In this document: piece after piece, positions 7,911 through 64,000 of the stretch
Numbering within the stretch: the first letter of the stretch is position 1
Layout of the letters: every line of letters begins with the position of its first letter
Virus record (IMG/VR): IMGVR_UViG_3300022213_000237
Location: 1-64,000 of that record
Length of the DNA stretch: 64,000 bases
Origin: a virus
Reading direction: 5' to 3' (one strand)
Position numbers and translations under genes: made by a program
The notes under the pieces: generated by a model
What the model was told of the DNA's origin: nothing
Seen by the model: the letters and a program-made list of their open reading frames with translations, nothing else
Database searches by the model: none

Positions 7911-8228
7911 ATGTACGCGGCCACGATCTCAAGCTACACACTTAACATGCGGTACTGGTGGATTGCCATGTTTGCGGTCACGCTCCAAGCCTTTGATGCC
8001 TGGGCTACTTTGACCGAAATTGCGTGCGGAGCCGCCACCGAAGCCAACCCCATCATGGCCCACAGCTTGCCCACATTTTTTGCCATGAAAATACTGGCCA
8101 CGGGATGGATCGCTCTATTGGCTGTGAATAGCTGGCATAAATGGGCACGTGCAGGGCTCTGGATTGTAATGTTGGTTTACAGTCTAGTCGCTATATACCA
8201 CATCTGGGGACTTACCCACTGTTTATAG
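7911..8228 (+). CDS. small integral membrane protein, DUF5658-like
   Basis: 105 residues with three to four hydrophobic helices. The segment LQAFDAWATLTEIACGAATEANPIM followed by FFAMKILATGW matches the pattern I know from DUF5658 membrane proteins (Asp-rich first helix, EANP, then a lysine-bearing second helix). The start at 7911 is chosen because the promoter occupies the upstream in-frame TTG. A separate promoter makes it an independently expressed accessory gene inside the late block. Function unknown. Confidence 0.7.
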   Translation: MYAATISSYTLNMRYWWIAMFAVTLQAFDAWATLTEIACGAATEANPIMAHSLPTFFAMKILATGWIALLAVNSWHKWARAGLWIVMLVYSLVAIYHIWGLTHCL

Positions 8229-8564
8229 CGGTACGATTCGTAGTTCGCCGTCTCCGACTTGCGCAAGCTGCATCCCGCCAGTATTCAGAAGCATGTTAAC
8301 GAGTGTGAGTGCAACATTAAGACAGTCGTTGGCCGAGGCCCTGTCTTGTGGATGTTGGGCGTCAAAAACTTCACACCGTTCCTGTAGTACGTTTACTAAG
8401 GCGAGAGCAGATTCCCTAGTCCATTCCGCTCTGTAGCCGGTGGGCTCGAGGCCCATGGCTAGTTGTTCTCGTAATCGGTCAATGTCCGATGCCGCCTTCT
8501 CCAAGCGATTCTTTTGTTCGTCGGCTGCGGCTGCAAAAGCATTACATAGTTCTTCTGGTGTCAT
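8223..8564 (-). CDS. hypothetical protein, antisense in the structural block
   Basis: 113 residues. Long amphipathic helices (KNRLEKAASDIDRLREQLA) suggest a coiled coil in the first half; the second half is helical. A ribosome site AGAGG lies 9 bases before the ATG on the minus strand. The 3' end overlaps the convergent membrane gene by 6 bases. Probably an early-type gene inserted between late genes. No family recognised. Confidence 0.6.
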   Translation of the reverse strand: MTPEELCNAFAAAADEQKNRLEKAASDIDRLREQLAMGLEPTGYRAEWTRESALALVNVLQERCEVFDAQHPQDRASANDCLNVALTLVNMLLNTGGMQLAQVGDGELRIVPL

Positions 8565-8610
8565 TTATCAAGCCTCTAAGAAACTTAGTAGCTGCTCGAT
8601 CTTACAGCCT

Positions 8611-8617
8611 TAATCTT
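8611..8617 (+). promoter_or_regulatory. candidate late promoter element TAATCTT
   Basis: CCTTAATCTT lies 8 bases before the ATG at 8626. A TTTGGGAG stretch in that gap could act as a ribosome site if transcription starts further upstream. Confidence 0.45.
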
Positions 8618-8625
8618 TTGGGAGT

Positions 8626-9621
8626 ATGATTCGAACGGGAACAAATGGCGTCTTCCAGAGTGATGTCCTCATTCGCGCCGCCATTATTGCCGGTATAGAC
8701 GAGATTAGACAGAAGCCGTGGCTGCTTGATTACGTCTTTTCTTGGTTACCGAACGATCCGTTAACATCAAAAACGTACGGGGCGAAAGAATTACAAGAAG
8801 CCAAAAATTGGTTCCTGTCGACCGAAGTAGCGGTTGTAATGGCCTATCGTACAGACCAACCTCAATTGCCGTGCATTGGAATCGAGCTAGTTGAGTCCAC
8901 AGAAGCTCATGCTACCATAGGCGACGTACATTACGAGACTTCAGAAGACGTTGCCGCGAACGAGGTAGCTATTGAGCCCGACAAAATCGTAGGCCCATTT
9001 ACCCCCAAAGCTTACGATATCGAAACGGGTATTGTAACTATGCCCGATAATCAGTCGACGGCCAAAGTTTTTGCCGGCATGTATATTTTTGATACGGTAG
9101 CAAATAGAGGGTATCAGATTTCGGAAGTTCTGTCCGACCAGACCTTTAAACTCGACGACGGGACTAAAGCCAATTTTACGAATTGCTATATAGCTGGGCG
9201 TGATGCGTTCTGGACCATACCTCTATACAGTATGGTTTTTCGCGAAAGCTACCGCATGCGGTGTTTCGTTACTGCTAGTCCCATACATTTGAGTTTTCTC
9301 TACTCCGTATTGTTGTTCGTGTTGATGCGCGGAAAGAAAGACCTCCTTGAAGCCAGAGGATTTGAAAACTTTACCATAGCTGGTTCTGGGTTTGCTGGCG
9401 CACAAATGCCCAATAATCCTGAGATGATCTTCACGAGAGACATTACGGTTACTGGCATTGTGCGTCAATATTGGCCAGGTAATCCGGGACGTAAGCTTGA
9501 TGGAATCCTGGTGGATTCGTCAATTATGGATAGTGGTAAATCGCCGAATGGTATAGCGGAATTCGTTTCCGAACAAGGTTGGGAATTGGAAGATGATCAA
9601 TTTGGAGCCCTTAGGGAATAA
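8626..9621 (+). CDS. putative virion structural protein
   Basis: 331 residues, mixed alpha/beta, without low-complexity regions. The C-terminal third has beta-rich segments typical of neck or tail-terminator proteins (MIFTRDITVTGIVRQYW). It sits directly upstream of the repeat protein and the sheath. Role inferred from position only. Confidence 0.65.
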   Translation: MIRTGTNGVFQSDVLIRAAIIAGIDEIRQKPWLLDYVFSWLPNDPLTSKTYGAKELQEAKNWFLSTEVAVVMAYRTDQPQLPCIGIELVESTEAHATIGDVHYETSEDVAANEVAIEPDKIVGPFTPKAYDIETGIVTMPDNQSTAKVFAGMYIFDTVANRGYQISEVLSDQTFKLDDGTKANFTNCYIAGRDAFWTIPLYSMVFRESYRMRCFVTASPIHLSFLYSVLLFVLMRGKKDLLEARGFENFTIAGSGFAGAQMPNNPEMIFTRDITVTGIVRQYWPGNPGRKLDGILVDSSIMDSGKSPNGIAEFVSEQGWELEDDQFGALRE

Positions 9622-9635
9622 GCGCGCCAGAGCCC

Positions 9636-9642
9636 CAATCTT
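9636..9642 (+). promoter_or_regulatory. candidate late promoter element CAATCTT
   Basis: CCCCAATCTT lies 26 bases before the ATG at 9669. A TAGGAG ribosome site lies between, so this unit would have a short leader. Confidence 0.4.
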
Positions 9643-9668
9643 GGAAAAGAGTTTTAGGAGAATACTTC

Positions 9669-11432
9669 ATGTCTGATATCAAGACCCCAGCCGATGTAGC
9701 CGCCGAGTTAACAAAAGCACTTGGCGAGAAGATCGACACCTTGAAGAAAATGGAACTTCCCCAGTCGCCCGAAAAGGCTGATGGCGGTCAAGAATCATCG
9801 GGTTCAATCCCCGCCATGCCTAAACAAGCAGGCGGAACCACTGATGCCGAAATGGCGAAAGATGAAGTCGTTTCTGTGAAAAGGGCAGAATGCCCTGGTT
9901 GTGGCAAGAAATCTGCCCAAGAGCATGAAGGTGTCTCTGGACGCAAGATGGTAGCCATTTGCGGTAATTGCAAGAAGCGAAACGTCGGCAACGTAAAAAA
10001 GATGGACCTTCCTGCGTCGCCAGAAGCGGCTACCGGCGGCGAGATCGCAAAGAAATCAGAACTCGACGCTCTAGATTTTGCCCAGGCGCTCAGCAAAGCC
10101 GTGGTGGAAAAAATCGCGGGCGTGCGCGAACAACTTGAGAAAATGGAGCGACTCGAAGCCGCAGGTAACGAGGATTTAGCTAAAGGTCTTAAGTCCAAGG
10201 GCGTCAAAAAGAATATTGGGTCACTGCCCAGCAATACGCCATCGAATAAGCAAATTGCGGATGGCGATCCTAACAAATCGCATCCAATGCCTAAGTCGGT
10301 ATTCGATATCATGAATAAGGGCGAAGGTAAATTCCTGCCCTGGGCTAAAGGCACTAAGAAGCCAAAAGTAGGAAAAGAAGTAGAAGCTGAAGGCAGTGGC
10401 GGAAGTGATACCACTAAGCCCGGACCTTCACTTCAAAAGGACGCCCTTCCTGTAGCCAAGCCACCGAAGATGCCAGCTCTTAAGCCCGCAGGTGTGCCTG
10501 GCGCCAAAGCTGGTGACGCACCCAAGGCTCCTAAGGCGCCAGGTGCCCCCGGACAGACTGGTAGTACGATGAAAATGGAACTTCCTCAGTCCCCTGAAAA
10601 GGCGGGTGGTGGTGACATGGCAAGTGGCTCTGTGCCCGCTATGCCCAAACAGGCCGGTGGAACCACCGACGCAGAGATGGAAAAAGAGGAGATGTCTCCG
10701 GAAGAAACCAACATCGCCGAAGAATCGTCTGCAGAAGAAACACATATGGGTAAGGATGAATTGCCCCAAACTCCTGAAAAAGCGATTGGCGGTCAAGAGT
10801 CTTCTGGATCTATTCCCGCTATGCCTAAACAAGCAGGAGGAGCTACTGACGCGGAGATGAAGAAGAACGCTTTGCCTCCCAATCACGCAAGTCCCGTATT
10901 TGCGGTCCATGCTTCTGTTTTCGGTAATAAAGCCGCACCTGGAGACCCTCACGGCGGCAAATCAGGATACTTAATCACCCAGGCTCTACCTAAACTTAAA
11001 CCTGCGGCTGCGGGTATGCATACCGTGGGTCAAGATGGACCTCCTACGCCGGCACCTGGCGATATGGGTGCTGGTAACAAGACAGTTAACCTTCGTTCGC
11101 CGGTCGGAAAATCCGAAGACATGGCTAAGGGCGTGTTTTCTCAGGCGGCACAACATTCAGACCCTTCTTTTGCGTCGCATGCGGCCAGCAAAGCTGCGGC
11201 AGCGCCAGCAGCAAAACCTGCACCCATGGGTGGGCCGAACGATGCCCGCGCAGCAGCGTTTTCAGCGGCATTAGCGGGAGAATTTCAACCCAAAGCTCCT
11301 ATTAAGACCGGACTCGAGCTGGCACATCCTAAAGCCGCCAACTTGCCGAAATTCGGCAAAGCTGAACTGGATAGCGTCAAGTGTCCAGGATGTAAGCAAG
11401 GCATGACCCTTTGTAAGTGTGGATCCAAGTAA
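9669..11432 (+). CDS. repeat-containing low-complexity virion protein with zinc-ribbon motifs
   Basis: 587 residues, Pro/Ala/Lys-rich and probably mostly disordered. A unit of about 33 residues (ELPQSPEKA-GG...SGSIPAMPKQAGGTTDAEM) occurs three times near residues 28, 303 and 364, with a fourth degenerate start near 115 (MDLPASPEAATGG). A CPGCGKK...CGNCKK pair (about 77-107) and a C-terminal CPGCKQGMTLCKC are likely metal sites. K-S-E tripeptides occur near 135 and 481. Placed just before the sheath; possibly a scaffold, internal head protein or proteolytically matured component. No enzyme motif seen. Confidence 0.7.
   Translation: MSDIKTPADVAAELTKALGEKIDTLKKMELPQSPEKADGGQESSGSIPAMPKQAGGTTDAEMAKDEVVSVKRAECPGCGKKSAQEHEGVSGRKMVAICGNCKKRNVGNVKKMDLPASPEAATGGEIAKKSELDALDFAQALSKAVVEKIAGVREQLEKMERLEAAGNEDLAKGLKSKGVKKNIGSLPSNTPSNKQIADGDPNKSHPMPKSVFDIMNKGEGKFLPWAKGTKKPKVGKEVEAEGSGGSDTTKPGPSLQKDALPVAKPPKMPALKPAGVPGAKAGDAPKAPKAPGAPGQTGSTMKMELPQSPEKAGGGDMASGSVPAMPKQAGGTTDAEMEKEEMSPEETNIAEESSAEETHMGKDELPQTPEKAIGGQESSGSIPAMPKQAGGATDAEMKKNALPPNHASPVFAVHASVFGNKAAPGDPHGGKSGYLITQALPKLKPAAAGMHTVGQDGPPTPAPGDMGAGNKTVNLRSPVGKSEDMAKGVFSQAAQHSDPSFASHAASKAAAAPAAKPAPMGGPNDARAAAFSAALAGEFQPKAPIKTGLELAHPKAANLPKFGKAELDSVKCPGCKQGMTLCKCGSK
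9748..10855 (+). repeat. three near-identical units of about 99 bp inside the 9669 gene
   Basis: Units start near 9748, 10574 and 10757 and are in frame. They encode ELPQSPEKA...KQAGGTTDAEM with few substitutions, and several of the differences are silent, which points to old in-frame duplication under selection for the protein sequence. Confidence 0.75.
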
Positions 11433-11446
11433 ACACTTTTAAAACC

Positions 11447-11453
11447 TAATCTA
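11447..11453 (+). promoter_or_regulatory. candidate late promoter element (variant TAATCTA)
   Basis: ACCTAATCTA precedes the sheath gene. An ACAGGAG ribosome site then lies before the ATG at 11481. One base differs from the other elements. Confidence 0.35.
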
Positions 11454-11480
11454 CCGCACAGGTAACAGGAGAATTTCCAA

Positions 11481-14366
11481 ATGGCACAGAGCTACCAAAC
11501 TGATTCCGCAACACTGTATCTTCCGGGAGCATACCCAGAAATTAAGGTGCAGCAGCAACAGAGCGGACTCCCTACGACAGGAATTATTTTCCTGGTAGGT
11601 GAAGCCGAAGCCGGCCCGTCATTCGACGAAGAGTCGGATCTCTCGTTGAATTTCTTCGCACCCACGGAAATGAGCGAAGTTATTGCCAAATACAAATCTG
11701 GTCGATTGGTTGATGCCTTCCGTGCCGCCGCTAATCCAGCCAAAGACGTCAACATCACTGGATCTCCTTCTTTTATCTACTGCATCAAAACCAATCAAGG
11801 GGCCAAAGCTTCTTTGGCCTTGTCTCGTTCTGGGTTAACCGATTACGGTACTCTGTACGATAAATCGTACGGCGCACTAGGTAACCTGCTTTATTCTCAG
11901 GTCTCTGCCTCACAAGCAGAAGTAGCTCCAGAGACGGGGTTGCTGACCTACATCCCCCTACCAAGCTTAGGTGGCAGCGATTCCGCAAACGTTGGCGTAC
12001 GTGTGAATGGTGGAGCAAAAAGCGCTATCACCGTTTCTGCACGCACCTCTCCAGCCAGCCTTGCGGCTCAATTCAATGCCGTTGACGGTCTTGAGTTAGT
12101 CGGTGGTGTAGATCGAGATATTTTAGACGGTGTAAGCGCGCCCGACACCCTCGGCCTCGTGGCTTCAGGTAATGCCGTCACTATTACCGTTAGCTCTGCT
12201 TGGGGTAATGCCCCGACCGTTGGCGATACGATGATTATCGCTCGTGACACCACGTATGGTAACACCGCAGATTCAGTTATCGACGGTGCCGGCGGTGAAA
12301 ACTTCGGAGCCTACATAGTAACTGCTGTTACCACAAATACTATTCAGGCAACCAAACTCCGAGACGACGATGCCTCGGGAGCGCCTACTGCGCCTGCAAC
12401 CGTTGCACCGGTTTCGCTCAGCGGCACCCCGGCCAACGACCTGAAGTGCTTTAGCCCGATTAACTTCAAAGTTATGACCGGCGTGGATCGAGGAATGTTG
12501 GATGTGAATACGGTCGGCAACGATGTCACCGGCACCGCTTCTGGATCATCCTTGACTGTGGTCCTCGAAACTGGTTTTGCTTGGGCAGCTCTTCCTCAGG
12601 TTGGCGACATTGTCAAAATTCCTTCTTCGGCTCCTGCCGGAATTAAAGGCGGCGGCTCGGAAAACGTAGGCAAATACGTTGTCACTGCCGCAACTACTGG
12701 GACTGGTGCCGGTGAGTCTAGCGTGACCATGACTCGCATCAGCAACGGCGACCCCGTTAGCTTCGGAGCCACGGCACTCGCTGCGGCCACGGATATCGTT
12801 TGTCTACGACCTGTAATGGATGGCGTTGGAAAGGTGTTGGAATTGACCGATAACGCCGGTTCTGTTGCAGCCGCTCAGCAATTCTTTGAAACCGATGGCA
12901 CCGCCGCCGATATTCTTTCTGCTTCTGGAGACGTGCTTCTCTGGACTTCAGCATCGGAACAAATCGTGCGCCTGAATGTCACGCGCCAATCTGACGGTAC
13001 GGCAGAAGCAATCACCGCTGGTGGCGATATCGTGCTGAAAATAGGGTACAAGGGAACCACGGCCACAATGACTTTTGATGGCACGGACCTCACCACCACT
13101 GTTGTGGGCGGGACCGGAGCTTCGTTGACCGGCGCGAGCGCGCTGAAGATTAGTCAATTCAAGACGCTGTCTGATTTGGCACAATTCATTAACTCCAAGA
13201 CCGGATATTCCTGTTCCGTGGGCAGCGCCCTGTATGGCCAACTGTCTCCCACGATTCTGGACTACGGCACTTTCTCGATTTGTTCTGACATTGCTGGTAG
13301 TCAGCCTGGAAGAATTAAGCGCGATGCTCAACGCTTCTTCGATCAAGTGTCGACCAATAGCGGAACCGTGCAGCTTGGCGATCCGGCAGAACGTGCGGAT
13401 GCAGGTCTTCCGGAAGCTCAGGCCATTTCTTATCTGGCCGGTGGAACCCTTGGAGCCACCACCGCGACTCAAGCGGCGGCGGCCATCGACGCCCTCAGCA
13501 AGTTGCGCGGCAACTTCGTAGTCACTCTCTTCTCGCGAGATGCGACAGACGATATTGCAGACGGTCTAACCGATTCTGCTTCTTCATACGAAATCGATGC
13601 CATCAACGCTGCGGTTTCGAGTCACGTTTTGGCCATGAGCAAGCTGAAAACTCGTCGTCATCGTCAAGGCTTCGTTTCCTTCCGTGGAAGCTTTGCTGAC
13701 GCCAAACTTGCGGCCCAGAATATCGCCAACTACCGCGTGTCGATGCAATTCCAAGATGTCAAAGCTTTGTCGTCTGACGGATCTATTGTTCAGTTCCAAC
13801 CTTGGATGGCTTCCGTATACGCGGCAGGCATGCAAGCGGCTGGATTCTACCGTTCACTTGTTTTCAAAGGTCTTGACGCTTCAGGCGCTCTGATGGCAGA
13901 TGGTTCGTTTACGGACCAAGACGATGCAGACTTAGAAGCTGCGGTCACCAACGGTCTCATGGCCATTGAGCGTCCAGTTACGGGCGGTATTCGCTGGAAC
14001 ACTGACCAGACCACTTACGCTGTTGACGGTAGCTTCGTCTTCAACTCGGTGCAGGCTATCTACGCTTCCGACACTATCGCGCTCACCGTTGCTCAACGAA
14101 TGGAAAATGCATTCGTAGGTCAGTCCGTGGCCGACGTTTCCGCCTCCGTGGCTCTTGCGTATCTGCAAGGAATCATGGCCGACATGAAACGACTCAAGTT
14201 GATCGCCGGCTCAGACGATGCCCCACTTGGATACCGAAATGCGCAGATTGTCATCTCCGGTAACGCCATGAAGGTACAGCTAGAAATCAAACTCGCGGGC
14301 GCAATCCTCTTTATCCCGATCACGTTCCTGGTAACCCAGGTTCAGCAGTCGGCTTCACAGCAATAA
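11481..14366 (+). CDS. contractile tail sheath protein
   Basis: 961 residues. The N terminus has the sheath-typical LYLPGAYPEIKVQQ, and the C terminus ends in the sheath-type beta strand exchange region (VQLEIKLAGAILFIPITFLV). It is longer than most sheath proteins because of a central insertion (about 205-450) made of two tandem related domains, each starting with GVDR-[DG]-[IM]-LD and containing a ENFGAYIVTA or ENVGKYVVTA core. These would decorate the outside of the sheath. It defines the phage as a myovirus type. Strong AGGAGAAT ribosome site. Confidence 0.93.
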   Translation: MAQSYQTDSATLYLPGAYPEIKVQQQQSGLPTTGIIFLVGEAEAGPSFDEESDLSLNFFAPTEMSEVIAKYKSGRLVDAFRAAANPAKDVNITGSPSFIYCIKTNQGAKASLALSRSGLTDYGTLYDKSYGALGNLLYSQVSASQAEVAPETGLLTYIPLPSLGGSDSANVGVRVNGGAKSAITVSARTSPASLAAQFNAVDGLELVGGVDRDILDGVSAPDTLGLVASGNAVTITVSSAWGNAPTVGDTMIIARDTTYGNTADSVIDGAGGENFGAYIVTAVTTNTIQATKLRDDDASGAPTAPATVAPVSLSGTPANDLKCFSPINFKVMTGVDRGMLDVNTVGNDVTGTASGSSLTVVLETGFAWAALPQVGDIVKIPSSAPAGIKGGGSENVGKYVVTAATTGTGAGESSVTMTRISNGDPVSFGATALAAATDIVCLRPVMDGVGKVLELTDNAGSVAAAQQFFETDGTAADILSASGDVLLWTSASEQIVRLNVTRQSDGTAEAITAGGDIVLKIGYKGTTATMTFDGTDLTTTVVGGTGASLTGASALKISQFKTLSDLAQFINSKTGYSCSVGSALYGQLSPTILDYGTFSICSDIAGSQPGRIKRDAQRFFDQVSTNSGTVQLGDPAERADAGLPEAQAISYLAGGTLGATTATQAAAAIDALSKLRGNFVVTLFSRDATDDIADGLTDSASSYEIDAINAAVSSHVLAMSKLKTRRHRQGFVSFRGSFADAKLAAQNIANYRVSMQFQDVKALSSDGSIVQFQPWMASVYAAGMQAAGFYRSLVFKGLDASGALMADGSFTDQDDADLEAAVTNGLMAIERPVTGGIRWNTDQTTYAVDGSFVFNSVQAIYASDTIALTVAQRMENAFVGQSVADVSASVALAYLQGIMADMKRLKLIAGSDDAPLGYRNAQIVISGNAMKVQLEIKLAGAILFIPITFLVTQVQQSASQQ

Positions 14367-14379
14367 TCTCTAGGGTATA

Positions 14380-15012
14380 ATGATAGTGTATGGATTAACA
14401 GATCCACGTACGAATGAACTTCGATACGTGGGAAAGACGGATAAGGGGCTGGAGGTAAGGCTTCAGCAGCACTTACAGCCGGCATATCTGCGTCCAAATA
14501 CACACAAAAACGCTTGGATAAAATTACTTAAGCGGGAAGCCCTGAGACCAGATATTTTTGTAATTGAAGAAACGCAAGACCCAGAAGCTGAACAATTTTG
14601 GATCTCGTATTACAAATCTATTGGTTGTGATTTAACGAACGGTACAGTTGGTGGCGAAGGATGGAAGGTTGGCACCAAGCATTCGGAAGCCGCTAAGAAA
14701 AAGATTTCTGAGGCTCATATGGGTCGCAAGAAAGAATATGAGACTTGGAATAAGGGTAAGACTGGGATCTATTCTGAAGAAACATTGAAGAAAATGTCTG
14801 AATCTAAACTTCATCGAAGTTTTAGCGCAGAAACTAGAGAAAAGATCTCAAAAGCACATGGCGGTAAGTCAATCATCGATAGTAACGGTGTAGTTTATCC
14901 CACCATAGCCGAAGCTGCACGGCGCCTTAAGTTGCAGGAATCAAACATTAATGCAGTAATAAAGGGCCGCGCCCGCCAAACTGGCGGATATACGTTTAAG
15001 TACGCGGAATAA
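14380..15012 (+). CDS. GIY-YIG homing endonuclease
   Basis: 210 residues. The N terminus gives the GIY-YIG core (IVYGLTDP...LRYVGKT), the catalytic arginine region (LEVRLQQHL) and the metal-binding glutamate helix (EAEQFWISYYK). Residues 95-165 hold NUMOD3-like motifs (SEAAKKKISEAHMGRK and TREKISKAHGGK). The C terminus (TIAEAARRLKLQESNINAVIKG) is an IENR1/NUMOD1-type helix-turn-helix. It is free-standing between the sheath and tube genes, the usual intergenic niche of phage homing endonucleases, and presumably spreads by cutting phages lacking it. Confidence 0.9.
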   Translation: MIVYGLTDPRTNELRYVGKTDKGLEVRLQQHLQPAYLRPNTHKNAWIKLLKREALRPDIFVIEETQDPEAEQFWISYYKSIGCDLTNGTVGGEGWKVGTKHSEAAKKKISEAHMGRKKEYETWNKGKTGIYSEETLKKMSESKLHRSFSAETREKISKAHGGKSIIDSNGVVYPTIAEAARRLKLQESNINAVIKGRARQTGGYTFKYAE

Positions 15013-15021
15013 GGTGACATT

Positions 15022-15483
15022 TTGGGGACCACGGCGAAAACAATGCACGGATCGCGTGCGCAGGTAATGATAGACGGTAAAATCATTGGTATTTTTACTA
15101 ACGTAAGCTACGGCGTACGTTACGATGCCAATCCCGTCCACATTCTCGGTCGCTTTTCGGCTGCAGAAATCGTGCTCTCGGGTATGGAGCCCGTCTCAGT
15201 TGATTGCACGGGCTTCCGTGTTGTCGACAATGGCCCTTATAAGGTGGCTTCGGTTCCGCGACTTCAGGACCTACTGAATCACGAGGACATCACCCTCGCT
15301 ATCTTCGATCGTCAATCGGGGGAGCAAATCATGACCGTAGTAGGTGTACGCCCCACCGGGTATAGCACCTCAGTCGCGTCTCGCGGTATACAGGACCTGA
15401 CTGTCAATTTCATGGGCTTGCGTCTCTCTGACGAGAATGACCCGAACGGTCAGGACGAAACTCCAGGGGCGACGGAATTCTAA
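15022..15483 (+). CDS. tail tube protein
   Basis: 153 residues directly downstream of the sheath/homing-endonuclease pair. The pattern ARVMIDGKIIG...VSYGVRYDANPVHILGRF and the beta-rich remainder fit myovirus tail tube proteins. The best start is TTG at 15022 with AAGGTGA eight bases upstream; ATG at 15043 is an alternative. Asp/Asn/Gly-rich C terminus. An intrinsic terminator follows, which closes the sheath-tube unit. Confidence 0.8.
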   Translation: MGTTAKTMHGSRAQVMIDGKIIGIFTNVSYGVRYDANPVHILGRFSAAEIVLSGMEPVSVDCTGFRVVDNGPYKVASVPRLQDLLNHEDITLAIFDRQSGEQIMTVVGVRPTGYSTSVASRGIQDLTVNFMGLRLSDENDPNGQDETPGATEF

Positions 15484-15505
15484 GTTACTGAAATTCCTAC
15501 TCACA

Positions 15506-15972: not shown

Positions 15973-15974
15973 TT

Positions 15975-16724: not shown

Positions 16725-17089
16725 GGGGCTGAATTGGATTCGACGGAGGAGAGTGAAGAGTAGATGCGAGTCGTGGTTGGTCATCGGCCACGTAAAAAGA
16801 AGACCAAAAATAAACGCCAAGTCTAACGACGTGGTTCCTGCGTGGATGATTGCAGCTTCGGCTGCCGGCATCCAAGCCTTCGCCTAATAAGCGAAACAGG
16901 ATGTGGATGGAAGAGGATTCCGAGTATTCCATCTGCATAAACCACACGGAATGTAGTGGAGAATGACTGCCTGTCGACTCTCCACCAAATTTAGGCAGGC
17001 AAACGTCGTACCAGCCTCGGGTAGAGGAAACACTCGTAGTATCTATTTGTAGCATCTTGCGGACCCCGGTTCGATACCGGGCAGCTCCA
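16725..17089 (+). ncRNA. ssrA: transfer-messenger RNA (tmRNA)
   Basis: A full one-piece tmRNA. The 5' end GGGGCTGAATTGGATTCGACGG and the 3' end with T loop GTTCGAT and CAGCTCC form the alanine-type acceptor. The pseudoknot-1 region (GTTGGTCATCGGCCACGTAAAAAG) aligns with that of E. coli tmRNA. AATAAAC then precedes the resume codon GCC at 16816. The reading frame runs 23 codons to a double stop TAATAA at 16885. The tag begins AKSNDVVPAW and ends GIQAFA, longer than the usual 8-15 residues. No CCA is encoded. It would rescue stalled ribosomes, and perhaps reroute host protein during infection (inference). Confidence 0.93.
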
Positions 17090-17413
17090 CTTTTAGGTTC
17101 GCTCAGGGCTTGTCGAAGGGGCGATTAAATCGGACGATAACTCCCTTCCGAGCCATTTGTTTTTGCTGGCTTTGAAAACCAGCTGGTGGAGGCACCTTGA
17201 GTGCCCTTCGTCCCGGCGAAGTAAAATAGTCCTTTAGCCGGGAGCGTTCAGAGCCGGGTGTTCTCACCGGCCTGATGTGGAGATAGTCGGGCATCATGTT
17301 AAATCCATGGTGTGTCTGAATTATCCGCGCACGGTATAATACGGGCCGTGGGCGAACGCCTGATAAGCCACTACGGACGGCTGTGCACAGCTACTGTTCC
17401 TACCGCATTATTT
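17090..17413 (+). other. 324-base gap in the tRNA array with REP-like element and hairpins
   Basis: 17096-17121 (GGTTCGCTCAGGGCTTGTCG and following bases), read on the minus strand, resembles the CTTCGACAAGC-CTGAGCGAAC extragenic repeat found in many bacteria. Further hairpins are GCTGG/CCAGC (17168-17186), GGCAC/GTGCC and CTTCG/CGAAG. A TATAAT box at about 17332 could promote the downstream tRNAs. A TTTGAAA loop recalls tRNA-Ser, but no acceptor or T arm matches it. No protein gene seen. Confidence 0.35.
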
Positions 17414-39654: not shown

Positions 39655-39690
39655 TTGACAATTACAGTGTTTTATGGTTTAGTTGTGAAC
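39655..39690 (+). promoter_or_regulatory. sigma70-type promoter for 39691
   Basis: TTGACA at 39655, 17-base spacer, TTTAGT at 39678, ATG seven bases later. Same leaderless geometry as the minus-strand early promoters. Confidence 0.65.
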
Positions 39691-42069: not shown

Positions 42070-42105
42070 AGTGGTCTTTATACAGGATCTTTTATCGGGA
42101 GTCAA
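42070..42105 (-). promoter_or_regulatory. leaderless-type promoter for 42069
   Basis: TTGACT (42100-42105), 17-base spacer containing AGATCC, TATAAA (42077-42082), then seven bases to ATG. Confidence 0.85.
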
Positions 42106-42512: not shown

Positions 42513-42548
42513 GAGTGTCTTTATATAGAATCCTTTATTCGTTGTCAA
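42513..42548 (-). promoter_or_regulatory. leaderless-type promoter for 42512
   Basis: TTGACA (42543-42548), 17-base spacer ACGAATAAAGGATTCTA, TATAAA (42520-42525), seven bases to ATG. Confidence 0.88.
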
Positions 42549-44632: not shown

Positions 44633-44669
44633 GGGTACCTTTATACGGTATCGCGTAGATCTTTGGCAA
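44633..44669 (-). promoter_or_regulatory. leaderless-type promoter for 44632
   Basis: TTGCCA (44664-44669), 18-base spacer with AGATCT, TATAAA (44640-44645), seven bases (GGTACCC) to ATG. Five bases separate its -35 from the divergent late element at 44674. Confidence 0.8.
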
Positions 44670-44673: not shown

Positions 44674-44680
44674 CAATCTT
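44674..44680 (+). promoter_or_regulatory. candidate late promoter element CAATCTT
   Basis: CCCCAATCTT lies six bases before ATG at 44687 and back-to-back with the early promoter of 44632. Confidence 0.5.
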
Positions 44681-44686
44681 TACGGC

Positions 44687-47728: not shown

Positions 47729-47763
47729 AAAGTCACTATACCATGAGATCTACGCGACCACAA
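47729..47763 (-). promoter_or_regulatory. leaderless-type promoter for 47728
   Basis: TTGTGG (47758-47763), 17-base spacer with AGATCT, TATAGT (47735-47740), six bases to ATG. Its -35 overlaps the divergent late element. Confidence 0.65.
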
Positions 47764-47767
47764 TCTT
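47761..47767 (+). promoter_or_regulatory. candidate late promoter element CAATCTT
   Basis: CCACAATCTT lies six bases before ATG 47774 and overlaps the -35 box of the opposite early promoter by three bases. Confidence 0.5.
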
Positions 47768-47773
47768 GACGTC

Positions 47774-49339: not shown

Positions 49340-49346
49340 TAATCTT
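49340..49346 (+). promoter_or_regulatory. candidate late promoter element TAATCTT
   Basis: AAGTAATCTTGG lies 35 bases before ATG 49382, with AAAGGAG between. Confidence 0.35.
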
Positions 49347-49381
49347 GGATACTGAATACCTTTCAAAAGGAGTTTACTTAA

Positions 49382-52598: not shown

Positions 52599-52634
52599 GA
52601 TTTCTTTCTATCAAAGAATTGGGGATCTTGTCAA
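52599..52634 (-). promoter_or_regulatory. leaderless-type promoter for 52598
   Basis: TTGACA (52629-52634), 18-base spacer with AGATCC, TAGAAA (52605-52610), six bases to ATG. Confidence 0.78.
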
Positions 52635-55894: not shown

Positions 55895-55930
55895 GGCTCA
55901 CTTATACCATTAAAGAGAATCGCTTGTCAA
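55895..55930 (-). promoter_or_regulatory. leaderless-type promoter for 55894
   Basis: TTGACA (55925-55930), 18-base spacer, TATAAG (55901-55906), six bit-length bases to ATG. Confidence 0.85.
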
Positions 55931-56513: not shown

Positions 56514-56516
56514 AAT

Positions 56517-56702: not shown

Positions 56703-56723
56703 GGATAGTCTATATGGAGTGGA

Positions 56724-57056
56724 TCAATTTTTACGAAATAGTTCGGAGTACAAATAAATTCTCAGCTCGTTTGTGTCCATATTAGCCAATTCGCTTGTTT
56801 CTTTAACGGTTAGCGATCTTTTGAACTTACGTTCTAATTCAGCCGTCAGCCAATTAAGAATCGCAGACCTGTGGCCACGGCGCTCGTATCGCTGGTTCTC
56901 TAAATCTTCGGTGTGGCGCCTTCTGAATTCTTCTAGCTCTAATACAATCCAAATCCCGTAAAAGCCTATCACACATACAAGCTGTTTTACCGGCTCAACA
57001 TCTGAATTAATGAGAGCGATAGTCGCAACGATGGCGATGAACGGCTTAAGCAGCAT
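56724..57056 (-). CDS. membrane protein, two-helix N terminus
   Basis: 110 residues. Two hydrophobic helices (KPFIAIVATIALI and VKQLVCVIGFYGIWIVLE), then a charged helical domain. Overlaps the helicase gene by 11 bases. Function unknown. Confidence 0.62.
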   Translation of the reverse strand: MLLKPFIAIVATIALINSDVEPVKQLVCVIGFYGIWIVLELEEFRRRHTEDLENQRYERRGHRSAILNWLTAELERKFKRSLTVKETSELANMDTNELRIYLYSELFRKN

Positions 57057-59373: not shown

Positions 59374-59408
59374 AAGGTATTTATACCGTACCGACTGGAT
59401 CTAGTCAA
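59374..59408 (-). promoter_or_regulatory. leaderless-type promoter for 59373
   Basis: TTGACT (59403-59408), 17-base spacer with AGATCC, TATAAA (59380-59385), six bases to ATG. Confidence 0.85.
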
Positions 59409-59421
59409 GGATCTTCAACTT

Positions 59422-59700
59422 TCAACGAGAAGAGGTTCCCTTGCCATCACAGGTTTGGCATAAACGAGAACAACCATGTGAGCCATCGAACCATGTGCCC
59501 TCACCGCGACACTCCTTACAATACCGGCGGTGCTTCGCCGTATTGATTTGAATCTGGCCAACCACGTCTTCAATGCAGTCGTGCAATAGACGACGAACAT
59601 CGTGCATGTTGTCGCCAAACTCGGACGCCTTGTCGTGCGCCTTGTCGAGGAGCTTTAGAAGCGCGTCGAGGTTCTGGTTTTCTTCGACTTTAGTTTTCAT
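59422..59700 (-). CDS. small DnaJ-type zinc-finger protein
   Basis: 92 residues. A helical N-terminal half, then CKECRGEGTW...CSRLCQTCDGKGT: two CxxCxGxG motifs as in DnaJ. No J domain. Perhaps a chaperone partner or RNA-binding factor. GGAGGAAAC ribosome site; ATGA overlap with upstream gene. Confidence 0.72.
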   Translation of the reverse strand: MKTKVEENQNLDALLKLLDKAHDKASEFGDNMHDVRRLLHDCIEDVVGQIQINTAKHRRYCKECRGEGTWFDGSHGCSRLCQTCDGKGTSSR

Positions 59701-59885
59701 GTTTCCTCCGGTCTACGTGCGCCATCAAGGATTTCTAATCCGGTCTTAATGGCATCAATAAAGGTCCAACCCGCTGGCGTCTTGGCTTTCATACTCGCGG
59801 GACGATTAATATTCTCGTAGGCGCGATAGAAGCGGTCAAACTCTACGTCTCGGGCCATAAACTCTTTGACGTCTTCGGGTTTCAC
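59697..59885 (-). CDS. small hypothetical protein (GTG start)
   Basis: 62 residues. GTG overlaps the stop of the upstream micro-gene as GTGA. Helical; no family recognised. Confidence 0.58.
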   Translation of the reverse strand: MKPEDVKEFMARDVEFDRFYRAYENINRPASMKAKTPAGWTFIDAIKTGLEILDGARRPEET

Positions 59886-59977
59886 CCCGCCACCAGGAAG
59901 TAGGCAACTGCTGAATAGGAAAGAACCGCAAAGAGAACAGCAAGCACAGCTAAGTCGATAACGTTGCGTAGGTTCAT
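59882..59977 (-). CDS. membrane micro-protein of 31 residues
   Basis: MNLRNVIDLAVLAVLFAV then LSYSAVAYFLVAG: a short positive N terminus and a single membrane helix. Its ATG overlaps the upstream stop (ATGA) and its stop overlaps the next start (GTGA), strong evidence of translation. Function unknown; such peptides often regulate a membrane enzyme. Confidence 0.6.
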   Translation of the reverse strand: MNLRNVIDLAVLAVLFAVLSYSAVAYFLVAG

Positions 59978-60168
59978 ACCTCTAAACTAGCCTGTGGATC
60001 TGTTTCGGACCATAAATCTCCAGACTCGAACTCACGATCAGCTACAGCCCACCACAAAACACCTTGTTCTTCGCCAACTAATTTTTGGGTAAGCCAATCC
60101 TTTTGCTGGGTGTTTACGAAATAAATCGTTTGTCCAATTGGAGGAATCTTATAAGGCATGTCTGACAT
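59974..60168 (-). CDS. small hypothetical protein
   Basis: 64 residues from ATG at 60168 (an in-frame TTG at 60177 is possible). PYKIPPIGQTIYFVNTQQ then VLWWAVADREFESGD: beta-rich. Overlaps the micro-protein start. No family recognised. Confidence 0.58.
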   Translation of the reverse strand: MSDMPYKIPPIGQTIYFVNTQQKDWLTQKLVGEEQGVLWWAVADREFESGDLWSETDPQASLEV

Positions 60169-60185
60169 ATCGTACAATTTGGTGG

Positions 60186-60211
60186 TGAATTGTCCATTTT
60201 ATCGGACAATC
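60186..60211. repeat. palindrome TTGTCC/GGACAA upstream of 60168
   Basis: ATTGTCC, an eight-base AT-rich centre and GGACAAT. It could be an operator for the 60168 unit or a weak hairpin at the end of the 60240 gene. Confidence 0.5.
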
Positions 60212-60239
60212 AAGACAAACAGGCAATAGAGGTCGTCGT

Positions 60240-60563
60240 TCATTTGCTATCCCCGATCGCTTTGGCGATGGCGGTGGCAATGGCATCGTCCAACAGCGAA
60301 CTGCCGCCACGAGTCTCATCTAAAAGAGATGGACACTCTCCCTTGACGAGCGCCACCAACTCCTCAAGGCACGCAAGCAAATCCGGTGCGGCGGCAATGA
60401 GGCGCGCGTTGGCTTCGTCCGGGTCTCGAATCGCTGCGACGGTTCCGTAAGCCGAGACCACATCCCATCGAAGCATTCGATGAAGGTCTACAGCCACGGG
60501 CCCGCTTCCCAAAATCACCTTCGACACCGCTTTCCACGGCCCAGGCGTAAATTTTGCGCTCAC
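60240..60563 (-). CDS. conserved phage hypothetical protein
   Basis: 107 residues from GTG (GTGA overlap). KFTPGPWKAV at the start and IRDPDEANARLIAAAPDLLACLEELVALV (in part) in the middle form a pattern present in very many phages. Function unknown. Confidence 0.72.
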   Translation of the reverse strand: MSAKFTPGPWKAVSKVILGSGPVAVDLHRMLRWDVVSAYGTVAAIRDPDEANARLIAAAPDLLACLEELVALVKGECPSLLDETRGGSSLLDDAIATAIAKAIGDSK

Positions 60564-60865
60564 AGCACACCGCCTCTCAACTTAGCCACGGCCACCACCT
60601 GCTGGGCGGCGCGTACCCAGTTCTCGGGCGTAAGGCTCCAGGCCTCGCACGCGATTCTCATCTTGCACAATTCATTGAATCGGGTGTTAGTGGCGTCGGC
60701 AGGCGCAAATTTTGCGCTCATGGCCTTCCATTCCTTGCGTAGTGAGGAGAACTCCGCGCGTTGCTCAAGCAGCAACACCATCTCGTTATAAGCGGTTTCG
60801 ATCGCGTTCTCGTGTTGGAACTGAAGGGCTTCTAGCTCTGCTGGATCGTTGTAATAAAGTGTCAT
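60560..60865 (-). CDS. hypothetical coiled-coil protein, leaderless
   Basis: 101 residues. Start ATG 60865 fixed by the promoter. Helical (NDPAELEALQFQHENAIETAYNEMVLLLEQ, in part). The promoter lies inside the end of the preceding gene. Confidence 0.65.
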   Translation of the reverse strand: MTLYYNDPAELEALQFQHENAIETAYNEMVLLLEQRAEFSSLRKEWKAMSAKFAPADATNTRFNELCKMRIACEAWSLTPENWVRAAQQVVAVAKLRGGVL

Positions 60866-60901
60866 GGTGTAGTTATACAGGATCTTGTGGGGTTGTGTCA
60901 A
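60866..60901 (-). promoter_or_regulatory. leaderless-type promoter for 60865
   Basis: TTGACA (60896-60901), 18-base spacer with AGATCC, TATAAC (60872-60877), six bases to ATG. Overlaps the 3' end of the 60873 gene. Confidence 0.83.
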
Positions 60902-61424
60902 GCTCTTCTTCCCATGCGGGATTGATTATCTCCATGTCGAGAAAATCCTGTAGCATCGCAAAGGAACTGACCGTGTATCCAATCTTCATGTGAAATTCGG
61001 CATACTCTCGTTGGGTGAGAACCTTCTTCGTGTGGTAGTCGAGACGTAGCTTATTCAAGTCGATTACGCCACCGTCCACAAGCTTGGAGAGCAGTGGGTC
61101 GGGGACAAAACGCTGTTGACCCTTTTCGTCGAAATACGTCGTATAATGGTCTTTGCCGACCTTGACCATGACGTATACCGGCGATTCTGGTACTTCCGCT
61201 TTGGCCATCTTGTACAGAGCCATCACAAAGTTCACAAAATTGTCTTCATTGTAGAAGGGGTCGGCGTCAGTGCCACTGATCTTCTCGTACATCTCCGCAT
61301 CAAAGCCGTATAGCGCATTCATGAAAAACTGACCAGGCCGTTGACCGTTTAACGCCATTTCTAGCTGTGTCCATTTGTCTTGCGTGGCTTCAAACCAGGC
61401 TTTGACTTCGCTGAGAGTTTTCAT
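60873..61424 (-). CDS. hypothetical alpha/beta protein
   Basis: 183 residues from ATG 61424 (ATGA overlap). TLSEVKAWFEATQDKWTQL, VYVMVKVGKDHYTTYFDEKG and later helices suggest a soluble two-layer fold. No known family. Acidic. Confidence 0.65.
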   Translation of the reverse strand: MKTLSEVKAWFEATQDKWTQLEMALNGQRPGQFFMNALYGFDAEMYEKISGTDADPFYNEDNFVNFVMALYKMAKAEVPESPVYVMVKVGKDHYTTYFDEKGQQRFVPDPLLSKLVDGGVIDLNKLRLDYHTKKVLTQREYAEFHMKIGYTVSSFAMLQDFLDMEIINPAWEEELDTTPQDPV

Positions 61425-61603
61425 TTGTTTCTCGTCCTGAATGCGTGTATGACTTCGGTCTCTAACTCGGTGCGGAAGGAGCAAAAGTCGCCGTCAATGG
61501 AGTATTCACGTTCCTGCTGTTTCCTCACAACGGAAAGCGTTTTGAGGAGAATGATGATTGGTATGAGGGTGAACACCACAATCACGATATCGACGAAGTT
61601 CAT
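61421..61603 (-). CDS. small membrane protein
   Basis: 60 residues: N-terminal helix (DIVIVVFTLIPIIILLKTL) then a soluble part. ATGA overlaps on both sides. Function unknown. Confidence 0.6.
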   Translation of the reverse strand: MNFVDIVIVVFTLIPIIILLKTLSVVRKQQEREYSIDGDFCSFRTELETEVIHAFRTRNK

Positions 61604-61773
61604 ACTTCCTCTACTAGATCAATTACGAGTTCGTCGTCAAGTTCCTCGGCAATCATTTCTCCTAATGTGGCCGCACGTTTTGCGCGTTCATTTAATTCGA
61701 TCATGATCGCCATTGGAGACCAACCCATGGCGCCCAGCACTCTAACGGCTTCGTCGAAAGTAACTTTGTCCAT
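61600..61773 (-). CDS. small helical protein
   Basis: 57 residues from ATG 61773. TFDEAVRVLGAMGWSPMAIMIELNERAKRA gives two helices (in part). TATGCA lies six bases before ATG, a possible weak promoter. Divergent from 61837. Confidence 0.58.
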   Translation of the reverse strand: MDKVTFDEAVRVLGAMGWSPMAIMIELNERAKRAATLGEMIAEELDDELVIDLVEEV

Positions 61774-61800
61774 GGTCAATGCATAGCTTGTGATCGTCAC

Positions 61801-61836
61801 TTGACTTCCGATAAAATGTTTTGTATAAAGGTACCC
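61801..61836 (+). promoter_or_regulatory. leaderless-type promoter for 61837
   Basis: TTGACT (61801-61806), 17-base spacer, TATAAA (61824-61829), seven bases GGTACCC to ATG. The -10/leader is identical to that of 43834 although the gene is on the other strand. Confidence 0.88.
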
Positions 61837-62142
61837 ATGACCGCATATCTCACCGGAAATTCTCTTTCTCTCGGTATTAGTCGCATTTCAAGTGGTTTTC
61901 TCGTCGAGGACGTTAACTCGGAACGGGCACGCCCAAATCGCGGGTACCACGACTACAATCGCAGACTTACGGTCTGGGGCTTTGCTAAGATAAAAATTGA
62001 CGCCCTAGCTGCGGAACAGCTTGCGGACGTCACCAAGCCTTTGTATATGTGGCAACGTGAAGTGTCTCGTATAACCTACGTTGTTGGTGATGTAACCTTC
62101 ACCGAAATACTCATCAACTACGGTTACGATTCGGGGGATTAA
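61837..62142 (+). CDS. small hypothetical protein, leaderless
   Basis: 101 residues, start fixed by the promoter. Beta-rich (YDYNRRLTVWGFAKIKIDALA-like). The only plus-strand gene in the 51-64 kb early block. Convergent with the Thg1-like gene. No family recognised. Confidence 0.65.
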   Translation: MTAYLTGNSLSLGISRISSGFLVEDVNSERARPNRGYHDYNRRLTVWGFAKIKIDALAAEQLADVTKPLYMWQREVSRITYVVGDVTFTEILINYGYDSGD

Positions 62143-62145
62143 TCG

Positions 62146-62937
62146 TTACGGTACCTTAATTAGGTTTTCTACGAACGACCGATCTTCTTTGAAGATGGGT
62201 GTGACGTTGGGCACGTACCATTCAGAACGCTCAATATATACGGGACCTTCTATTTTGGAAAGGAATTGACCGTTCACAGTAATTTCAGCCCGTGCGGCCA
62301 ATTCTTTTCGGACCTTGCGTTTAACCACGACTCGACCGTCTTTGGTATGGGAATCTAGCGCCGCCCAGTTAAACCCCTTTTGGAAACACATCTCGTGCTG
62401 CTCGGCACGACTTTTGCCGTGTAGCTCTTTGGGAGAATACAGAGATTGCGCAAGCATGGCAAGGCTGTTACGGTTCCAATCTTGTTGCCGCCAGATAAAA
62501 TAATTGTTGACTTCGTGTTCTGGTAGAACAAAAGCGCGGGCATCGAATACAGCTTCTTTAACCACTGGTCCGGGGAAGAGTCGAGGACTGAGAGTTGTCA
62601 TCTTGGCAGAAGCAGTGGCAGCGGCTACAGACACCATCTTTTGTAGGTTGTTATCAAACCAAGGCGAGGTATCAATATCTTTGTAATTGACCAATAACAA
62701 CGAGATTTCGTCACTTTGAGTGTACGCCAATACCGTATTCTGGACTTGATCGCAGAGATGTTTGGCGACGTCATTCATGACTGCCATTAAGTCTTTGGCG
62801 TATGGGCGCGCCAAGCCTTTTGTCCAAGTATGGAAGGCTTTGCCGTCCAATCGAATAATCACGGGCAACCGGTTGGGGAGATAATGGCGTGAGGCGCCTT
62901 CATACCGTTTCATCCGGTCCCCGAGAGTATCTTTCAT
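62146..62937 (-). CDS. Thg1-like 3'-5' nucleotidyltransferase
   Basis: 263 residues. VIIRLDGKAFHTWTKGLARP (Asp31) and LAYTQSDEISLLL (Asp76-Glu77) are the metal-binding motifs of the tRNA-His guanylyltransferase family; DARAF follows. Thg1-like proteins of bacteria, archaea and phages add nucleotides to 5' ends of truncated tRNAs, templated by the other strand. With the phage tRNAs, Rnl2-type ligase and tmRNA, a role in tRNA end repair is likely (inference). ATGA overlap with the upstream gene. Confidence 0.9.
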   Translation of the reverse strand: MKDTLGDRMKRYEGASRHYLPNRLPVIIRLDGKAFHTWTKGLARPYAKDLMAVMNDVAKHLCDQVQNTVLAYTQSDEISLLLVNYKDIDTSPWFDNNLQKMVSVAAATASAKMTTLSPRLFPGPVVKEAVFDARAFVLPEHEVNNYFIWRQQDWNRNSLAMLAQSLYSPKELHGKSRAEQHEMCFQKGFNWAALDSHTKDGRVVVKRKVRKELAARAEITVNGQFLSKIEGPVYIERSEWYVPNVTPIFKEDRSFVENLIKVP

Positions 62938-63104
62938 GATTTGTTCGTATCTGACTGATCATGCTTCCAATCACGACATTCACGCCGAGAACGCTCTTTA
63001 CGTTGATCCTTAGTAGTATTTGCCTTAGTGGCTCCGTTAATGAGCTTAACTAACAGAACGTCACGGGTTTTAAGCTTATTTGGATTTATCGTCTTTGGTT
63101 TCAT
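62934..63104 (-). CDS. small basic protein overlapping the end of 63076
   Basis: 56 residues, Lys/Arg/Asn-rich (KTRDVLLVKLINGATKANTT then KDQRKERSRRE). Starts inside the end of the upstream gene in another frame and ends in an ATGA with the Thg1-like gene. Could bind RNA. Confidence 0.5.
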   Translation of the reverse strand: MKPKTINPNKLKTRDVLLVKLINGATKANTTKDQRKERSRRECRDWKHDQSDTNKS

Positions 63105-63321
63105 TACGTAATCCCTTAACTCTCATAACTCGACGTTCTTCAGCCTTGCTAGCAAATTCGTATGTTTTGATTTCGCCATCACTATCTGCCACTAGAAAGG
63201 GATTTTGTTCAATACCGGTAAAAAACAATATTGACCCCTTTGACGGGATGAGAGCGGTGACTTCACCTATTTTATTACCTACGGCTACAAACATTCCTAT
63301 TTTAATGTCTTTAGCTTTCAT
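63076..63321 (-). CDS. small hypothetical protein, leaderless
   Basis: 81 residues. KDIKIGMFVAVGNKIGEVTALIPSKGSILFF forms a small SH3-like beta barrel; basic tail. Start fixed by promoter, and also by an ATGA overlap with the upstream gene, so it can be read from two transcripts. Confidence 0.65.
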   Translation of the reverse strand: MKAKDIKIGMFVAVGNKIGEVTALIPSKGSILFFTGIEQNPFLVADSDGEIKTYEFASKAEERRVMRVKGLRNETKDDKSK

Positions 63322-63539
63322 AGGGATCTTGTATCAGATTGATTGCGTCTTGTCAAGATCTTATACTCGGAATATGTTAGCTTAATTTCGCATCTTACGC
63401 ACATATAATAACCGGCGACACGGATTGCGAACGGCAGATCTCTTGGATCTTCTGGTAATTTTCTGTCAGGAAACATTTGATTATAACGTTTAACGGAAAT
63501 ATCTCCACCAGGGATTATTAGCCATTCATGCTCGCACAT
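63318..63539 (-). CDS. small hypothetical protein with zinc-knuckle
   Basis: 73 residues. CEHEWLIIPGG at the start and YYMCVRCEIKLTYSEYK near the end make a C-x-H/C-x2-C type site, a pattern seen in small phage proteins. Its end contains the promoter of the next gene. ATG directly follows the upstream stop. Confidence 0.62.
   Translation of the reverse strand: MCEHEWLIIPGGDISVKRYNQMFPDRKLPEDPRDLPFAIRVAGYYMCVRCEIKLTYSEYKILTRRNQSDTRSL
63322..63356 (-). promoter_or_regulatory. leaderless-type promoter for 63321
   Basis: TTGACA (63351-63356), 17-base spacer, TACAAG (63328-63333), six bases to ATG. Lies inside the 63318 gene. Confidence 0.8.
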
Positions 63540-64000
63540 TCACGGACCCACCTCATCCATCCAAGCGGTATCGCTCATAAGCTTATCGAGATAATCCCAC
63601 ATCTCAAGGTGTTCACCCGAAGAATACAGCTTGGCCGTAAACTCCTCATGCTCTTTACGGTACATTCTGAATAGAGGTGCGTTGCAGGTATGGATGGTAT
63701 GTTCGACGTTTGCAATGCGGTCGGCAAGCTTAAGTTGAGTCGCACCGGGCGTGGCTTTGATTTTAGGGTAAGTTTTAGCCTTACGTTCTTTCCTATTGAC
63801 CCCAGGTTCATCGGTAACTGCCGAAACCAGTTCGGCTACACGTGGACCAAAGAGATCGGCAATGGTCGCACTGGAAACGCCCGTGTCTTCGATAGAGTCA
63901 TGTAGGTATGCGGCACACAGCATGTCCTTATCAGAGACGTGGAACCGCAACGTGAGAGTGTCCACCACTTCGTAAAGATGATAGGAATAAGGGTGGTCAC
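63540..64000 (-). CDS. MESH1/SpoT-like HD hydrolase (partial)
   Basis: The 5' end lies beyond the window; the frame is open to the edge (reading DHPYSYHLYEVVD just before the visible GTG at 63968). AAYLHDSIEDTGVS is the HD motif and LADRIANVEH the second Asp, as in (p)ppGpp hydrolases. About 150 residues visible. It may remove (p)ppGpp or a related alarmone during infection (inference). No synthetase domain visible. Confidence 0.83.
   Translation of the reverse strand, partial: DHPYSYHLYEVVDTLTLRFHVSDKDMLCAAYLHDSIEDTGVSSATIADLFGPRVAELVSAVTDEPGVNRKERKAKTYPKIKATPGATQLKLADRIANVEHTIHTCNAPLFRMYRKEHEEFTAKLYSSGEHLEMWDYLDKLMSDTAWMDEVGP

What the first reader, a model, noticed from the sequence alone, without database searches (positions are those of the whole stretch)
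7911..64000. Family of sigma70-like promoters placed 6-9 bases before ATG: leaderless early genes
At least eleven genes (42069, 42512, 43834, 44632, 47728, 52598, 55894, 59373, 60865, 63321 on minus; 61837 on plus; plus 7911 and 39691 with slightly different spacing) have TTGACA-like, N17-18, TATAAA-like, then only 6-9 bases to ATG, with no Shine-Dalgarno sequence. Initiation about 7 bases after the -10 box would put the 5' end at the start codon.
Basis: partly seen in the sequence, partly recalled or inferred. Interest (0 to 1): 0.82.

Follow-up and report, generated by a model that had tools for sequence, protein, structure and literature searches.

The report
Phage genes without mRNA leaders
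In this large myxophage-like virus nearly all host-type promoters sit exactly one transcription-start distance before an ATG, so its presumed early mRNAs should begin at the start codon with no ribosome-binding leader, whereas its known relative Mx1 gives the same promoter class ordinary leaders, which makes the pair a natural experiment in how phages start translation.

Summary
Confirmed and extended. The window is part of a 169.6-kb phage related to Myxococcus phage Mx1. Genome-wide, sigma70-type promoters classed by a fixed scan give 14 leaderless (ATG 6-7 nt after the -10) to 1 leadered (35-nt leader plus Shine-Dalgarno, SD); chance gives about 0.3 leaderless. Mx1, about 58-72% identical in core proteins, gives 0 to 31: its same-class promoters carry 18-41 nt leaders with strong SDs (Fisher p=6e-11). 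A third relative, found as contigs in a mis-binned MAG, is again mostly leaderless (13:8). The leaderless ATGs lack SD (duplex energy as at random sites) and always follow a pyrimidine (49/49; background 48%), as expected if +1 is the A of ATG. Several starts are independently fixed by homology, domain boundaries or stops just upstream. I also found a second promoter element, [C/T]AATCT, before late/structural genes across the family, often exactly 7 nt before ATG (leaderless), otherwise 16-55 nt away with an SD; a divergent phage sigma factor is its likely reader. Leaderless phage mRNAs are known; what is unusual is a near class-wide choice that differs between close relatives. 5' ends, timing and host remain unmeasured.

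The parts
42077..42105 (-). host-type promoter TTGACT-N17-TATAAA, 7 nt before ATG 42069
42520..42548 (-). promoter TTGACA-N17-TATAAA, 7 nt before ATG 42512 (71 aa)
   Evidence: coding score
43842..43870 (-). promoter TTGACA-N17-TATAAA, 7 nt before ATG 43834 (73 aa)
44640..44669 (-). promoter TTGCCA-N18-TATAAA, 7 nt before ATG 44632 (151 aa)
47735..47763 (-). weak promoter TTGTGG-N17-TATAGT, 6 nt before ATG 47728; phrog_17693 protein whose N-terminus aligns with homologs
52605..52634 (-). promoter TTGACA-N18-TAGAAA, 6 nt before ATG 52598; in-frame stop only 3 codons upstream
55901..55930 (-). promoter TTGACA-N18-TATAAG, 6 nt before ATG 55894; DUF2786/DUF7168 protein, Pfam domain begins at residue 6; stop 1 codon upstream
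59380..59408 (-). promoter TTGACT-N17-TATAAA, 6 nt before ATG 59373; helicase, ResIII domain begins at residue 4
60872..60901 (-). promoter TTGACA-N18-TATAAC, 6 nt before ATG 60865
63328..63356 (-). promoter TTGACA-N17-TACAAG, 6 nt before ATG 63321
61801..61829 (+). promoter TTGACT-N17-TATAAA, 7 nt before ATG 61837
7872..7901 (+). promoter TTGACA-N18-TATAAG, 9 nt before ATG 7911 (DUF5658 protein)
39655..39683 (+). promoter TTGACA-N17-TTTAGT, 7 nt before ATG 39691; N-terminus looks like a lipoprotein signal
43..50 (+). late-type element TAATCTTG, 5 nt before ATG 56 (leaderless)
44674..44681 (+). late-type element CAATCTTT, 5 nt before ATG 44687 (541-aa beta-helix protein, leaderless)
47761..47768 (+). 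late-type element CAATCTTG, 5 nt before ATG 47774 (510 aa, leaderless; divergent from 47728)
5105..5112 (+). late-type element CAATCTTG, 34-nt spacing to ATG 5147 with SD (leadered contrast)
9636..9643 (+). late-type element CAATCTTG, 25-nt spacing to ATG 9669 with SD AGGAG (leadered contrast)
11447..11454 (+). late-type element TAATCTAC upstream of tail sheath ATG 11481, with SD AGGAG (leadered contrast)
49340..49347 (+). late-type element TAATCTTG, 34-nt spacing to ATG 49382 with SD AAGGAG (leadered contrast)

Best explanation
Host RNA polymerase with its housekeeping sigma factor transcribes the operons headed by these promoters, probably early in infection. The promoters are placed so that +1 is the A of the AUG, giving 5'-pppAUG mRNAs with no leader. 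The first gene of each operon would be translated by direct ribosome (70S-type) recognition of the 5' AUG; many downstream genes have ordinary SDs. A second, family-wide promoter element [C/T]AATCT, most likely read by the phage-encoded divergent sigma factor, drives late/structural genes, and part of these are also leaderless. Shown here: promoter geometry, absence of SD, -1 pyrimidine, conserved start codons, statistics, contrast with relatives. Inferred: actual 5' ends, timing, sigma assignment, 70S initiation.
For: Enrichment of 6-7 nt spacing far above shuffles. At those distances 27 of 27 start codons found in this phage and the G002 phage are ATG, no GTG or TTG. Pyrimidine at -1 in 49/49 (p=3e-16 against background; p=6e-9 against leadered and reference starts) and A at +4 in 34/49. 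No SD. Starts fixed by homology or domains: 78639, 47728, 55894, 59373; stops 1-4 codons upstream for 52598, 55894, 63321, 83100. No SD-preceded alternative start within 70 nt for the 14 scan-classed promoters. Same-class leadered promoter 85714 keeps an SD and a leader resembling Mx1's. Mx1 same-class promoters: 31 leadered, 0 leaderless. G002 phage again leaderless, 13. Late element and sigma factor.
Against: No transcript data. RNA polymerase can start 5-9 nt after the -10, so some mRNAs could carry 1-3 nt leaders (7911 likely does). Four of the 49 starts have a moderate SD-like score. A few ORFs are short with weak coding signal (74817, 42069, 7911, 78054). Only 22 of 48 downstream operon starts reach the -5 SD threshold, so SD use is not universal even in leadered genes. 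The host is unknown, so its capacity for leaderless translation was not tested.
Confidence: 0.85

Rival explanations
1. The promoters are real but the ATG at 6-7 nt is not the main start: translation begins at a downstream codon, so the mRNAs have ordinary leaders.
For: Mx1 orthologs and same-class promoters have leaders of 18-41 nt; some leaderless-class ORFs are short.
Against: No SD-preceded start within 70 nt downstream of the 14 scan-classed promoters; N-termini of 78639, 47728, 55894 and 59373 are conserved up to this ATG; a 6-7 nt ATG peak is not expected under this model.
Confidence: 0.06
2. The mRNAs start further upstream from unseen promoters and the TTGACA/TATAAA motifs are not used, or are a chance by-product of A+T-rich intergenic sequence.
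For: Some leaderless-class genes lie within gene strings and could be read through from upstream.
Against: Enrichment 14-16 against 0.3-1 expected; same-class promoters recur in Mx1 and G002; no SD that would let an upstream-started mRNA be translated conventionally.
Confidence: 0.04
3. Transcription starts a few nucleotides before ATG and translation uses a 1-5 nt leader with no SD; functionally almost leaderless but not AUG-terminal.
For: RNA polymerase start-site choice varies; 7911 (9 nt) and 8626 (late type, about 9 nt) look like this.
Against: -1 is a pyrimidine in 49/49 whether the spacing is 6 or 7, matching the Y-1/R+1 initiator rule with +1 at A of ATG.
Confidence: 0.05

Closest known systems
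Cluster O mycobacteriophages (Corndog group), PL1/PR2/PL2 promoters
   Same: Predicted SigA-type promoters with +1 on the first base of the start codon (PMC4351075)
   Different: Three such promoters described there; here 14-18 promoters, nearly the whole host-type class; unrelated phage; relatives with leadered versions known
Lambda-type leaderless mRNA
   Same: Leaderless initiation, first found in lambda phage of E. coli (cited in PMC3160421; that it is the cI transcript is from memory)
   Different: A single gene, not a genome-wide class
Myxococcus phage Mx1 (OR576727.2)
   Same: Syntenic relative, same host-type promoter family, same [C/T]AATCT late element, homologous sigma factor
   Different: Its host-type promoters are leadered with SD (31:0 in the scan; one annotated gene, 86279, is an exception); only its late class is partly leaderless
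Bacterial leaderless genes (Actinobacteria, Deinococcus-Thermus, some delta-proteobacteria)
   Same: -10 box about 12 bp upstream of the start codon; 8 of 33 delta-proteobacterial genomes average 15.8% leaderless genes (PMC3160421)
   Different: Cellular genes; -35 boxes not part of the published signal
T4-type late transcription with a phage sigma factor (gp55)
   Same: Phage-encoded sigma plus a short conserved element for late genes (T4 mechanism from general knowledge)
   Different: Different element sequence; late leaderless genes; homology found here is to host-type sigma region 2

Membership tests
Leaderless mRNA genes | -10 element one start distance (about 6-7 nt) before the start codon | tested here: met
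   14 scan-classed plus several weaker sites; 0.3-1 expected
Leaderless mRNA genes | No Shine-Dalgarno | tested here: met
   SD energy equals random sites
Leaderless mRNA genes | AUG start codon | tested here: met
   27/27 ATG at 6-7 nt in this phage and G002
Leaderless mRNA genes | Mapped 5' end on or within a few nt of AUG | not testable with these tools
   No transcript data; -1 pyrimidine 49/49 is indirect support
Mx1-related phages | Homologous capsid, portal, sheath, baseplate and sigma factor, with synteny | tested here: met
   MCP 72%, portal 66-67%, sheath 60%, baseplate 52%, sigma 58% to Mx1
Phage-sigma-dependent late promoters | Phage-encoded sigma factor present | tested here: met
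   ORF 139647-140702; RpoD region 2 match E=1.5e-7, PHROG sigma factor
Phage-sigma-dependent late promoters | The sigma factor recognises the element | not testable with these tools
   Co-occurrence of element and sigma in the family only
Early genes | Transcribed immediately after infection by host RNA polymerase | not testable with these tools
   Inferred from host-type promoters and blocks of small genes

The most novel reading that the evidence does not exclude
Leaderlessness here is a selected, class-wide trait of early transcription that flips between closely related phages (leadered with SD in Mx1, leaderless in this phage and the G002 phage), perhaps so that early genes are translated by a route independent of SD-led initiation or insensitive to shut-down of SD-led initiation.
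Probability: 0.3. Interest if true: 0.8.

Novelty: new variant of a known kind. Interest (0 to 1): 0.62.

Why it matters
Leaderless translation is usually studied gene by gene or in special hosts. Here two related phages use the same promoter family with opposite 5' architectures, plus gene-by-gene switches in a shared late class: orthologs of 146323 are leaderless in Mx1 but leadered here and in G002, and orthologs of 165677 are leaderless in G002 but leadered here and in Mx1. That lets one test directly what a leader buys a phage, and it improves start-codon annotation (for example Mx1 13002 probably starts at 13023).

Tried and rejected
Searches of viral contigs with MCP, portal and tail-tube alignments found no relatives; a small-protein alignment found one 33-kb contig, and a portal scan of genome contigs found two phages binned in MAGs. 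The G003 phage (34% GC) shows no host-type leaderless excess, though its late element shows 6 leaderless against 0.15 expected. Polarity of the switch: I first read it as loss of leaders in this phage, but the leaderless G002 phage lies outside this phage plus Mx1 (MCP 57-59% against 72%), so the direction is open; no tree was built. A permuted-motif control for the late element at the leaderless register was not impressive in this phage alone (4 against 1.6) but was in Mx1 (10 against 1.4). Structure prediction of the sigma factor was not run because its DNA did not come through the routes that tool lists. T4 and Mx8 controls: T4 gave 1 chance-like hit; Mx8 gave no promoter at these thresholds, so it is uninformative. 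Corndog's record was not in the collection under the accession tried.

Full report
What it is. The window is positions 1-64000 of a 169,567-bp IMG/VR phage record, 48.5% GC. The only hit in the phage collection with the protein searched is Myxococcus phage Mx1, and across the genome many proteins are 40-80% identical to Mx1 in a largely conserved order.

The observation. All claimed promoters were read directly. A scan of the whole record found 16 promoters with an ATG-started ORF 5-9 nt after the -10, against a mean of 0.97 in shuffles. A relaxed scan with fixed classes (leaderless = ATG 5-8 nt after -10; leadered = start at least 14 nt away with SD energy of -5 or lower) gave 14 leaderless to 1 leadered; shuffles give 0.3 to 1.75. 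The relaxed -10 rule was written after seeing the first hits, but the same rule was applied unchanged to Mx1, G002, G003, T4 and Mx8.

Are these ATGs the starts? SD energies equal those of random sites, unlike ortholog-validated genes. The base before ATG is a pyrimidine in 49 of 49 leaderless starts pooled over three phages and both promoter classes, against 48% of ATG ORFs in the genome; this is the initiator rule expected if transcription starts on the A. Classes were defined without using that base, although the late set was limited to the 7-nt register. At 6-7 nt only ATG is found, never GTG or TTG, though ATG dominates all genes. Gene 78639 starts with the same residues as its Mx1 ortholog; 55894 and 59373 begin with Pfam domains at residues 6 and 4; 47728 aligns from residue 1 with homologs in two other phages. 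For four genes an in-frame stop lies 1-4 codons upstream. Most ORFs have gene-like codon use; 74817, 42069, 7911 and 78054 are weak on that measure.

Comparison with relatives. Mx1 carries the same kind of promoters, often with GATC-containing spacers, but 18-41 nt before starts and with strong SDs: 31 leadered, 0 leaderless. One annotated Mx1 gene, 86279, is 6 nt from a weak -10. A portal search of genome contigs found two phages binned in MAGs. One of them, recovered as five contigs of G002 that I assign to one phage by homology, has 13 leaderless and 8 leadered host-type promoters; about one of the leadered ones is expected by chance. The 33-kb contig G001 has a leadered ortholog of 78639. 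The one leadered host-type promoter here, 85714, has a leader whose sequence resembles that of the leadered Mx1 promoter for the homologous DUF932 gene.

A second promoter class. While checking SDs I saw AATCTTG before structural genes. In an unbiased count of hexamers upstream of ATG-started ORFs, TAATCT ending 7 nt before ATG is the top hit in G002, and AATCTT/CAATCT at the same register top the list in Mx1. Copies 6-8 nt from ATG: 5, 10 and 10 in this phage, Mx1 and G002 against 0.4-0.9 expected; copies 16-55 nt away with SD: 14, 16 and 10 against 2.7-4.6. A minority of each class is therefore expected to be chance. Many of the genes concerned are structural (sheath, baseplate), so I call the class late by inference. 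A divergent sigma factor is encoded in all three with a homolog in G003.

How it most likely works. Host polymerase makes mRNAs that begin at AUG; ribosomes recognise the 5' AUG; downstream genes of each operon rely on SDs in many but not all cases (22 of 48 reach the threshold). The mechanism of leaderless initiation is taken from the literature (PMC9031893 abstract), not tested here. Host leaderless capacity is plausible: 8 of 33 delta-proteobacterial genomes were reported with on average 15.8% leaderless genes, but the text I could read does not name myxobacteria.

What is known and what is new. Leaderless phage genes are known, including predicted ones with +1 on the start codon in Cluster O mycobacteriophages. 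An unrelated phage examined here has a 9:9 mix. New here are the near class-wide use, the reversal between close relatives, and the family-wide late element with leaderless and leadered versions that differ gene by gene between orthologs. The direction of change is unresolved.

Noticed in passing
window 16725-17092 (+): Phage-encoded tmRNA within a tRNA cluster (13 tRNA genes called between 15.8 and 20.6 kb).
   Followed up: no
window 17206-17282 (+): Pistol ribozyme match (Rfam RF02679, 39.6 bits, above gathering score) between the tmRNA and tRNA-Gln.
   Followed up: no
G000 109625-112303, 143028-146288, 133241-136087, 149323-151323 (outside window): Primase-helicase, terminase, GroEL-like and another ORF are several hundred residues longer than Mx1 orthologs, and DNA polymerase III alpha is split in two ORFs (119262-121355, 122014-124188): possible inteins or insertions.
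   Followed up: no
L005/L006 (Mx1) host-type leaders, e.g. starts 87078, 89668, 101468, 103590: Mx1 leaders share a similar sequence (ACCTCGAACACAGGAGC-like) between promoter and ATG, more than an SD requires; possible common regulatory element.
   Followed up: no
promoter spacers in window and Mx1: Spacers of host-type promoters in both phages often contain GATC (AGATCC/GGATCT); GATC overall is below expectation in both genomes while AGATCC is above.
   Followed up: partly
L004 (Mx1) 13002-13023: Annotated start of the Mx1 putative prohead protease (13002) lies upstream of a CAATCTTG element; the likely leaderless start is 13023.
   Followed up: partly
L140, L170-L178: Phages related to Mx1 sit in bins labelled Saccharibacteria (CALMSM010000181.1) and Elusimicrobia (JAGWUP010000007.1); probably mis-binned. 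The second has its portal gene split over several frames.
   Followed up: partly
G004 (IMG/VR 172-kb contig, L180-L188): Unrelated phage with 9 leaderless and 9 leadered host-type promoters, both far above shuffles.
   Followed up: partly
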